Assembly (NCBI GenBank): GCA_016794585.1
Contig: JAEUJM010000018.1
Coordinates: 62,001 to 126,000, forward strand
Reading direction: 5' to 3'
Source: Acidimicrobiales bacterium
Lineage (GTDB): Bacteria > Actinomycetota > Acidimicrobiia > Acidimicrobiales > DATDAH01
Length of the DNA stretch: 64,000 nucleotides
The notes below the pieces were generated by a model, which saw nothing but the letters and a program-made list of their open reading frames with translations, was not told where the DNA came from and ran no database searches. This document shows, piece by piece, positions 27,423-55,648 of the stretch. A program made the translations under genes and the position numbers. The stretch's first letter is position 1. The number at the start of each line of letters is the position of its first letter.

Positions 27423-27439
27423 CCCTCGAACCCCGCCCA

Positions 27440-27485
27440 TCTGGTACACGGCTCGCCACGCTGGCGTAGCCAGGTAGGTACCAGA
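27440..27485. repeat. CTGGTAC...GTACCAG inverted-repeat element, copy 1
   Basis: TCTGGTAC (27440-27447) pairs with GTACCAGA (27478-27485), followed by ACG as in the other copies. Inside, CGCCA/TGGCG and GGCT/AGCC form a nested hairpin. It lies between the stops of the ferritin-like gene (+) and the MmyB-type gene (-), so it may act as a bidirectional terminator. Confidence 0.6.
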
Positions 27486-27503
27486 ACGGTCAGGGTGGTG
27501 GGA

Positions 27504-45951: not shown

Positions 45952-45970
45952 CTCCTACCCCGGCACACGG

Positions 45971-46026
45971 CTCGTTCTGGTGCGTCGTTGGCGACGCAGG
46001 TGTTGCCGGGTCGCTACCAGAACGAG
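45971..46026. repeat. CGTTCTGG...CCAGAACG inverted-repeat element, copy 2
   Basis: CTCGTTCTGGT (45971-45981) pairs perfectly with ACCAGAACGAG (46016-46026). An inner hairpin is GCGTCG-TTGG-CGACGC. It begins 19 bases after the GNAT stop and is followed at once by copy 3. Both lie before the convergent pirin stop. Confidence 0.75.
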
Positions 46027-46034
46027 AAATGGTT

Positions 46035-46086
46035 CGTTCTGGTGTGTCGTCGGCGACGCAGGTGTTGCCAGGTCGCTACCAGAACG
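46035..46086. repeat. CGTTCTGG...CCAGAACG inverted-repeat element, copy 3
   Basis: CGTTCTGGT (46035-46043) pairs with ACCAGAACG (46078-46086). Its right two thirds repeat copy 2 almost exactly (GCGACGCAGGTGTTGCC then GTCGCTACCAGAACGAG), so copies 2 and 3 arose by duplication. Confidence 0.75.
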
Positions 46087-46099
46087 AGGGGTTGGCCTG

Positions 46100-48885: not shown

Positions 48886-48909
48886 CCGGACCGCTCGCCC
48901 CACGACGCT

Positions 48910-48961
48910 CGTTCTGGGTACACGCTCGAGGCGCCGGTGACGCGGGGGTGGTCCCAGAACG
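48910..48961. repeat. CGTTCTGGG...CCCAGAACG inverted-repeat element, copy 4
   Basis: CGTTCTGGG (48910-48918) pairs with CCCAGAACG (48953-48961); the interior reads GAGGCGCCGGTGACGCGGGG. It begins 25 bases after a stop codon, between two rightward genes. Copy 5 follows 11 bases later. Confidence 0.72.
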
Positions 48962-48972
48962 CAGTGGACGCT

Positions 48973-49023
48973 CGTTCTGGGTACATGCCCGAGGCGCCGG
49001 TGACGCGGGGTGGTCCCAGAACG
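48973..49023. repeat. CGTTCTGGG...CCCAGAACG inverted-repeat element, copy 5
   Basis: CGTTCTGGG (48973-48981) pairs with CCCAGAACG (49015-49023). The interior is nearly that of copy 4 (a few substitutions and one G fewer), so this is a tandem duplicate. Confidence 0.72.
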
Positions 49024-50036: not shown

Positions 50037-50071
50037 CCCGCCTCGTCTCGCCGCGTCCCCGCCCGTTGCCC

Positions 50072-50123
50072 CGTTCTGGTAGCTCGCGTGCAACACCCTT
50101 GTTGCACGCGAGCTACCAGAACG
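50072..50123. repeat. CGTTCTGG...CCAGAACG element, copy 6: perfect 24-base-pair hairpin
   Basis: Arms 50072-50095 and 50100-50123 are perfectly complementary over 24 bases around a CCCT loop. The outer ends are CGTTCTGGTAGC and GCTACCAGAACG, as in copies 1-3. It starts 36 bases after the LLM stop, between two rightward genes, so it could terminate the LLM transcript. Confidence 0.85.
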
Positions 50124-50176
50124 AAGGTGGTGGGGGGTTGACCTCGAGTGTGCTTGAGGTCTTAGGGTCCGAGGGC

Positions 50177-54308: not shown

Positions 54309-54875
54309 TCAGCGCGCCAGCGAGACGAGCAGCGGGACGTAGTCCTCGATGGTCTTCGCCGCCGGCTCGGTGCTCTTGGCCCCGTCGTCCCAGCGCCGCA
54401 GCTGCACGGCGGCCTCCCAGCCTGGACGGGACTCGAACTCGGCCACCTCGTCGGCGCTCATGGGTCCGCCCTGGATGGCCAGGCTGCGAACCGAGACCGG
54501 TGAGAGGGTCTCGGCGTAGGCGGGCTCGACCGCACAGAGGTAGCGCTTGGCGTCGACGTGCATGCCGACCGGCGCGCTGACCTCGGGGCCGAACCACCGG
54601 CCGAGCAGGCGCTCACCCACGGCGTCGTGGGCGCGGTCTGCGGCCACGAAGGCGCCCTCGGCGGAGTCCCAGGCGATGGTGAGGCGCCCGACGTCGTGGA
54701 GGAGGGCGGCGGCCACGGTGGCGGGCGGCGCGCCGGCGGCCTCGGCCAGCGCCGCCGCCTGGAGGGCGTGCTCGCGCTCGGTGACCACCTCGTCGTACAT
54801 GGCCGTGGCCTTGTCGCTGCGGTAGAGCTCGACGAGCTCGTCGAGCCCGTCCAGGGAGCCGCGGGCCTCGCTCAC
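54309..54875 (-). CDS. HD-domain mixed-valent di-iron oxygenase, PhnZ/TmpB-like
   Basis: 188 residues. The sequence matches PhnZ blocks: EREHALQAAALAEAAGA, ALLHDVGRL, MHVDAKRYLC, SLAIQGGPMSADEVAEFE and LRRWDDGAK. All metal ligands fit (His36, His60-Asp61, His83, His106, Asp163). PhnZ cleaves the hydroxylated phosphonate made by PhnY, giving glycine and phosphate; TmpB acts on trimethylated analogues. Here the substrate-gating Tyr is one residue nearer the His than in PhnZ (Tyr27 with Glu29), and QLEH is EREH. GTG start overlaps the dioxygenase stop by four bases. Substrate is inferred. Confidence 0.86.
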   Translation of the reverse strand: MSEARGSLDGLDELVELYRSDKATAMYDEVVTEREHALQAAALAEAAGAPPATVAAALLHDVGRLTIAWDSAEGAFVAADRAHDAVGERLLGRWFGPEVSAPVGMHVDAKRYLCAVEPAYAETLSPVSVRSLAIQGGPMSADEVAEFESRPGWEAAVQLRRWDDGAKSTEPAAKTIEDYVPLLVSLAR

Positions 54876-55648
54876 GACGCCGGGGCCTCGACCGGCCGGC
54901 CGAGGAAGTCGTCGGTGATGCTGAGGCGCACCCGGTCGGCATCGCCGTCGAGCGCGTCGAACTCGGCCACCTTGTCCTCGTAGTAGGTGGTGCGGAAGTC
55001 GCCCGCCGACGCCGCGTTGTAGGTGAGGTACAGGGCCCGCCGGGCCCGGTCGGTGGTGTTGGTGTCGCTGCGGTGGGGGGCGTACGAGTCGAACCAGAGC
55101 AGGTCGCCGGGCTCCAGCTCGACGGGCTGCCAGTCCAGCTCGGCCACCACGTCGTCCCGCAGGCCGCGGAGGCCTTCCATGGGCAGCAGGCCGCGCTCGT
55201 GTCCCTGGGCCACCCACAGGCACCCGCTGGCGACCGTGGCCGGGTCGAGCGGCACCATCACGCTGATGTGGTGGTCCACGAAGCGATAGGCCGGAGCGTC
55301 CTGGTGGGGGGCGAAGCCGCCGCCGCCGGGCTGCTTGTAGTTGACCTTCTCCTTGTACAGCAGGGCGGGCTCGCCGAAGAGCTGCCCGGTGACCTCGACC
55401 AGGAGACCCTCGGTCAACAGTGCCCGCAGCCCGGCGTGGTGGCCGATGAGGTCCTCGCTGCGGGCGATGGTCGGCCCACCGTCGGTCTGCTCGAAGTGGT
55501 GCAGGCCGGGGCCGCCGCCGGTCGCCCAGCCCTCCACCTCGTCGACCCAGGCGGCGATCTCCGCCACGCGGGCCTCGTCGAGCGCTCCTCGCAGGACGAG
55601 GTAGCCGTCCCGCCGCCAGGCCTCACGCTGCTCGTCGTCCAACTGCAT
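54872..55648 (-). CDS. phytanoyl-CoA-dioxygenase-like Fe(II)/2-oxoglutarate enzyme (PhnY/TmpA-like)
   Basis: 258 residues. The iron-binding HxD is in GFAPHQDAPAYRF and the distal His in DSYAPHRSDTNTTDRARRALYLTYN, with Arg for 2-oxoglutarate. Phytanoyl-CoA dioxygenase family enzymes hydroxylate an alpha carbon. The coupled HD-domain oxygenase downstream makes the PhnY-PhnZ pathway the likely setting: hydroxylation of a 2-aminoethylphosphonate-like compound, then C-P cleavage. No phosphonate transporter or PhnW is nearby. The family is certain; the substrate is inferred. Confidence 0.87.
   Translation of the reverse strand: MQLDDEQREAWRRDGYLVLRGALDEARVAEIAAWVDEVEGWATGGGPGLHHFEQTDGGPTIARSEDLIGHHAGLRALLTEGLLVEVTGQLFGEPALLYKEKVNYKQPGGGGFAPHQDAPAYRFVDHHISVMVPLDPATVASGCLWVAQGHERGLLPMEGLRGLRDDVVAELDWQPVELEPGDLLWFDSYAPHRSDTNTTDRARRALYLTYNAASAGDFRTTYYEDKVAEFDALDGDADRVRLSITDDFLGRPVEAPAS

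What the first reader, a model, noticed from the sequence alone, without database searches (positions are those of the whole stretch)
54309..55648. PhnY-PhnZ-like phosphonate oxidation pair with an altered gating tyrosine
A phytanoyl-CoA-dioxygenase-like enzyme overlaps by four bases an HD-domain protein with every metal ligand of PhnZ/TmpB. In PhnZ a Tyr stands ten and a Glu seven residues before the first ligand His; here Met stands at -10, Tyr at -9 and Glu at -7, and the usual QLEH is EREH. This active-site change suggests a substrate other than 2-aminoethylphosphonate. No transporter or PhnW is near.
Basis: partly seen in the sequence, partly recalled or inferred. Interest (0 to 1): 0.7.

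Follow-up and report, generated by a model that had tools for sequence, protein, structure and literature searches.

The report
Methylphosphonate-type PhnY–PhnZ oxidation pair

Summary
The pair is real: a PhyH-type oxygenase (55648-54872, -) overlaps by 4 nt (GTGA) an HD protein (54875-54309, -) with all six PhnZ/TmpB metal ligands. Met at -10, Tyr at -9, Glu at -7 and EREH are all in the sequence. The shift is not an artefact, but it is not peculiar to this protein. Tyr is kept and the loop is one residue shorter (YxE instead of YxxE). True Gimesia-type methylphosphonate PhnZ1 orthologs have the same loop, as do all 24 non-redundant HD proteins found beside a GmPhnY-like gene. The partner oxygenase is closest to methylphosphonate hydroxylase (46% identity; subfamily-invariant residues kept). 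Related Acidimicrobiia pairs lie beside phosphonate transporter genes phnDCE, and some beside phnM. So this is a diverged member of the known oxidative phosphonate pathway, most likely for methylphosphonate, although it scores below NCBI's equivalog cut-offs. What is unusual is Arg64 at the position of PhnZ His62, which contacts the substrate's hydroxyl; His is nearly universal there. The genome lacks recognisable PhnD, PhnE, PhnJ, PhnW or PepM, so substrate and uptake remain open.

The parts
54872..55648 (-). PhyH-family Fe(II)/2-oxoglutarate oxygenase, PhnY-like (closest to methylphosphonate hydroxylase GmPhnY); ligands H115, D117, H192 and 2OG-binding R203 (assigned from the family pattern)
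   Evidence: Pfam PF05721 98 bits; NCBIfam NF052437 260 bits, cut-off 500; 46% identity to GmPhnY orthologs, subfamily-invariant residues kept
54309..54875 (-). HD-domain diiron oxygenase, PhnZ/TmpB-like
   Evidence: TIGR03276 190 bits, NF052439 161 bits, TmpB model 141 bits; TmpB and PhnZ chains by phmmer; predicted fold TmpB Z 26.3, PhnZ 25.8
54789..54800 (-). M26-Y27-D28-E29: gating loop, YxE (one residue shorter than YxxE of PhnZ/TmpB)
54684..54686 (-). Codon CGC, Arg64 at the position of PhnZ His62 (substrate-hydroxyl contact)
   Evidence: role of His62 from PMC7916636
54872..54875 (-). 4-nt start/stop overlap GTGA joining the two genes (translational coupling inferred)

Best explanation
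A two-gene phosphonate-oxidation module of the GmPhnY/GmPhnZ1 type. The PhyH enzyme uses Fe(II), O2 and 2-oxoglutarate to hydroxylate the alpha carbon of a phosphonate, most likely methylphosphonate, giving hydroxymethylphosphonate. The HD enzyme then uses a mixed-valent diiron centre and O2 to split the C-P bond, releasing phosphate and formate, with Tyr27 gating the O2-binding iron until substrate enters and Glu29 moves. Shown here: gene pair, ligands, fold, closest relatives, shared YxE loop, phosphonate-gene neighbours in relatives. Inferred: activity, substrate, products, gating by Tyr27, and P-scavenging as the role.
For: P0002 hits methylphosphonate hydroxylase (260 bits, E 1.9e-77) far above any other named family, is 46% identical to GmPhnY orthologs, and keeps nearly all residues that are invariant in the GmPhnY-like group but not in other PhyH proteins (R63, E65, K99, E100, K101, N103, Y121, T209, N211). 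P0001 has PhnZ/TmpB as its closest solved structures by sequence and by predicted fold (pLDDT 91.9; TmpB Z 26.3, PhnZ 25.8, MIOX 11.6). True GmPhnZ1 orthologs (over the NF052439 cut-off) share the YxE loop and an overlapping PhyH gene. 24 of 24 non-redundant HD proteins beside a GmPhnY-like gene have Tyr at -9, against 55 of 73 others with YxxE, and 11 further pairs agree (at least two of these, L189 and L190, repeat species already counted). Related HD genes lie beside PhnD, PhnC and PhnE in L147, L148, L150, L152, L158 and L178, and near PhnD and PhnC in L151; PhnC and PhnE are over NCBI cut-offs in L150 and L152; PhnM is beside L147 and L158. Several relatives fuse PhyH and HD into one ORF (L034, L049, L145, L150).
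Against: Both proteins score below NCBI's equivalog cut-offs for the methylphosphonate pair (260/500, 161/300) and P0001 is below TIGR03276's (190/214.6). P0001's nearest tree neighbour, L149, has YxxE and no GmPhnY-like gene in its 15-kb locus. Arg64 replaces a nearly universal active-site His. No PhnD/PhnE over cut-off in the genome, so the uptake route is unknown. The link between YxE and a GmPhnY partner is not significant once kinship is allowed for. Prochlorococcus PhnZ-like proteins have YxxE although a Prochlorococcus strain grows on methylphosphonate (PMC6581173).
Confidence: 0.6

Rival explanations
1. Same chemistry but a different substrate: the pair oxidises 2-aminoethylphosphonate or an N-methylated form, as PhnY/PhnZ and TmpA/TmpB do, giving glycine or a glycine derivative and phosphate.
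For: Glu29, equivalent to the PhnZ/TmpB Glu that contacts the substrate amino group, is kept (role from PMC8177086). The sister L149 carries a TmpB-like YLGE loop. GmPhnZ also cleaves the hydroxy-2-AEP made by PhnY (PMC10574752).
Against: P0002 belongs to the methylphosphonate-hydroxylase group and matched no 2-AEP hydroxylase or TmpA model. GmPhnY is reported as specific for methylphosphonate (PMC10574752). No PhnW or 2-AEP gene is near.
Confidence: 0.15
2. Same chemistry on an as yet unassigned phosphonate; Arg64 in place of His62 adapts the hydroxyl/phosphonate site to a different 1-hydroxyphosphonate, perhaps one bearing a negative group.
For: Arg64 is unique among the 129 distinct homologues aligned; His is otherwise universal except Gln in two Gluconacetobacter and Tyr in L191. 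His62 orients the substrate hydroxyl in PhnZ (PMC7916636). The phosphonate transporter is absent. R161 replaces a 97% conserved Gly in P0002.
Against: Other subfamily-invariant residues of P0002 and P0001 are kept. One substitution in one genome may be neutral or an assembly error.
Confidence: 0.15
3. The HD protein is impaired or inactive: Arg64 is a degenerative change or a sequence error (a single G/A difference, CGC for CAC).
For: The position is nearly invariant. Modifying the enzyme residues that orient the substrate lowers PhnZ activity substantially (PMC7916636).
Against: The gene is intact, keeps every ligand and all other invariant residues, and stays coupled to an intact partner.
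Confidence: 0.08
4. The HD protein is an ordinary HD phosphohydrolase that happens to lie beside a PhyH gene.
For: Weak hits to generic HD, HD_4 and HDOD models.
Against: Best matches by far are PhnZ/TmpB by sequence and fold; oxygenase ligand set and YxE loop; conserved pairing, overlap and fusion with PhyH in many genomes.
Confidence: 0.02

Closest known systems
GmPhnY/GmPhnZ1 of Gimesia maris (methylphosphonate hydroxylase / hydroxymethylphosphonate dioxygenase; NCBIfam NF052437, NF052439)
   Same: PhyH followed by an overlapping HD gene; 46% and 44% identity to close orthologs; YxE gating loop; same ligands; subfamily-invariant PhyH residues
   Different: Scores below both equivalog cut-offs (260/500, 161/300); Arg64 instead of His; R161 instead of Gly in PhyH; different phylum
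PhnY/PhnZ of HF130_AEPn_1 (2-aminoethylphosphonate)
   Same: Chemistry type, fold (Z 25.8), metal ligands, Lys108, Ser126 and Arg158 equivalents
   Different: About 30% identity; YxxE loop; His62; PhnY partner for 2-AEP
TmpA/TmpB of Leisingera caerulea (trimethyl-2-AEP)
   Same: HD oxygenase fold (Z 26.3, 33% identity), ligands
   Different: YxxE loop; NF049941 141 bits against a cut-off of 300; P0002 hits no TmpA model
myo-Inositol oxygenase (MIOX)
   Same: HD mixed-valent diiron oxygenase fold (Z 11.6)
   Different: No YxxE/YxE loop (PMC8177086); 14% identity; C-C bond cleavage

Membership tests
PhnZ/TmpB group of HD-domain diiron oxygenases | H...HD...H...H...D metal ligand set | tested here: met
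   H36, H60/D61, H83, H106, D163
PhnZ/TmpB group of HD-domain diiron oxygenases | Gating Tyr and substrate Glu before the first His (YxxE, PMC8177086) | tested here: inconclusive
   Tyr27 and Glu29 present but as YxE, one residue shorter; the same holds for GmPhnZ1 orthologs
PhnZ/TmpB group of HD-domain diiron oxygenases | Fold nearest to PhnZ/TmpB | tested here: met
   TmpB Z 26.3, PhnZ 25.8, then MIOX 11.6
TIGR03276 phosphonate degradation HD-domain oxygenase | Score over curated cut-off 214.6 bits | tested here: not met
   189.9 bits
NF052439 hydroxymethylphosphonate dioxygenase PhnZ1 (equivalog) | Score over curated cut-off 300 bits | tested here: not met
   161.3 bits
NF052437 methylphosphonate hydroxylase (equivalog) | Score over curated cut-off 500 bits | tested here: not met
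   260.3 bits over positions 5-258 of 260
GmPhnY-like PhyH group | Residues invariant in 34 group members (including this one) | tested here: met
   All fully invariant residues kept, which is partly by construction since the window protein is one of the 34; only R161 departs from a 97% Gly
GmPhnY/GmPhnZ1-type pathway | Activity on methylphosphonate and hydroxymethylphosphonate | not testable with these tools
   Needs enzyme assays
NF049941 TmpB (equivalog) | Score over curated cut-off 300 bits | tested here: not met
   141 bits

The most novel reading that the evidence does not exclude
The Arg64 enzyme, in a genome with no recognisable PhnCDE-type phosphonate importer, has shifted to a new 1-hydroxyphosphonate (or to a phosphonate released inside the cell), making it a further substrate type of the PhnY/PhnZ pathway.
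Probability: 0.15. Interest if true: 0.5.

Novelty: new member of a known kind. Interest (0 to 1): 0.25.

Why it matters
It suggests that methylphosphonate-type oxidative C-P cleavage, described in planctomycetes and Prochlorococcus, is widespread in Acidimicrobiia: 74 of 397 sampled genomes of the order hold a strong HD homologue. This route would yield formate rather than methane from methylphosphonate, which bears on oxic methane budgets. It also gives a sequence sign (YxE loop beside a GmPhnY-like gene) for annotating this type, and a natural His62 variant to test.

Tried and rejected
A local gap artefact as the cause of the Tyr shift was rejected: the shorter loop recurs in many rows. Uniqueness of the shift was rejected. 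Using YxE as a strict marker of a GmPhnY partner was rejected: 15 HD proteins have YxE without one, the loop changed at least 9 times on the tree, and the independent-pair test was not significant. A search for PhnD, PhnE, PhnJ, PhnW and PEP mutase in the genome found nothing over cut-off. The single-sequence structure model was poor (pLDDT 50) and was replaced by an alignment-based one. The papers on GmPhnYZ, TmpAB and the PhnZ-substrate structure are not in the library. One family scan failed on wrong coordinates and was not repeated.

Full report
Observation. The window holds, on the minus strand, a 258-aa PhyH-type oxygenase (55648-54872) and a 188-aa HD protein (54875-54309) that share the bases GTGA. 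The PhyH gene has GGAGG just before its ATG. The HD protein has ligands H36, H60/D61, H83, H106 and D163, and M26-Y27-D28-E29 before EREH.

What the genes are. NCBIfam gives, for the PhyH protein, methylphosphonate hydroxylase of the Gimesia type (260 bits, E 1.9e-77, cut-off 500). For the HD protein it gives phosphonate-degradation HD oxygenase (190, cut-off 214.6), hydroxymethylphosphonate dioxygenase (161, cut-off 300) and TmpB (141, cut-off 300). Among solved structures the HD protein finds only TmpB and PhnZ with confidence. An alignment-based AlphaFold model (pLDDT 91.9) matches TmpB (Z 26.3) and PhnZ (25.8) far above MIOX (11.6) and the HD hydrolases.

The gating loop. In PhnZ and TmpB the loop is YxxE; the Tyr binds the second iron until substrate enters and the Glu contacts the substrate amino group (PMC8177086). 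In an alignment of relatives the window protein keeps both residues but has one residue less between them (YxE). Eight planctomycete proteins over the curated GmPhnZ1 cut-off carry the same loop (YYDE or FYDE) and overlap a GmPhnY-type gene. Of 97 HD proteins under 80% identical, all 24 beside a GmPhnY-like gene have Tyr at -9 (two have Tyr at -10 as well), while 55 of the other 73 have YxxE. Eleven more Acidimicrobiia pairs agree, though at least two of them repeat species already counted. On the tree the loop type changes at least nine times, and the sister of the window protein (L149) has YxxE; a test on independent pairs is in the same direction but not significant. So the shift is real, recurrent and typical of the methylphosphonate-type enzymes, not an anomaly. 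It is not a strict marker, since Prochlorococcus PhnZ-like proteins have YxxE and a Prochlorococcus strain uses methylphosphonate (PMC6581173).

The partner. The PhyH protein is 46% identical to GmPhnY orthologs. It keeps every residue that is fully invariant in 34 GmPhnY-like proteins (itself included), among them several (R63, E65, K99, E100, K101, N103, Y121, T209, N211) that other PhyH proteins mostly lack; one 97% Gly is Arg161.

Neighbourhoods. In the window the pair stands alone between an acyl-CoA dehydrogenase-like gene and a methyltransferase. In other genomes of the order the HD gene lies beside phnD, phnC and phnE (L147, L148, L150, L152, L158, L178) or near phnD and phnC (L151), and in L147 and L158 beside phnM. 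L152 has HD-phnE-phnC-phnD with a GmPhnY-like gene beyond. In L034, L049, L145 and L150 PhyH and HD are one ORF. This ties the family to phosphonate use. The window's own genome has no PhnD, PhnE, PhnJ, PhnW or PEP mutase over cut-off, so uptake is unexplained.

The odd residue. At the position of PhnZ His62, which orients the substrate hydroxyl (PMC7916636), the window protein has Arg64 (HDVGR). Among 129 distinct homologues His is otherwise universal except Gln in two Gluconacetobacter; a further relative, L191, has Tyr. This could alter substrate choice, lower activity, or be a sequence error of one base. From memory, not tested here: MIOX has Lys at the matching place.

Verdict. A diverged member of the known oxidative phosphonate pathway, most likely acting on methylphosphonate. 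It does not pass the NCBI equivalog cut-offs, so it should be called GmPhnY/GmPhnZ1-like, not an equivalog. The finding is ordinary in kind, with one residue worth testing.

Noticed in passing
window 45969-46026, 46031-46088, 48906-48963, 48967-49010, 50068-50125 (and 27433-27490, diverged): Dispersed palindromic element of about 52 nt with ends CGTTCTGG...CCAGAACG, often in tandem pairs in gaps between genes. The strict pattern occurs 24 times in the 5.5-Mb genome and 0 times for the reversed control; at least two sequence types (TGGTAC... and GGCCGCG...).
   Followed up: partly
L145:8801-9847 and L049:8558-9607: A type I phosphodiesterase-family gene (PF01663, weak similarity to phosphonoacetate hydrolase) directly follows the fused PhnY-PhnZ-like gene in two relatives; in L145 a glycine-betaine-type ABC transporter follows. 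It could release phosphonates from esters.
   Followed up: partly
L034:7125-8501, L049:7140-8549, L145:6878-8794, L150:8272-9819: PhyH and HD domains read as a single ORF in Acidimicrobiia, which resembles the fungal PhoF fusion described in PMC10574752.
   Followed up: partly
L147:3483-8957 and L151: A YxE-type HD gene sits directly after phnM and a PhnL-like gene in what looks like a C-P lyase operon, next to phnDCE.
   Followed up: partly
L191 and L040/L053: Other natural variants at the PhnZ His62 position: Tyr (L191) and Gln (Gluconacetobacter).
   Followed up: no
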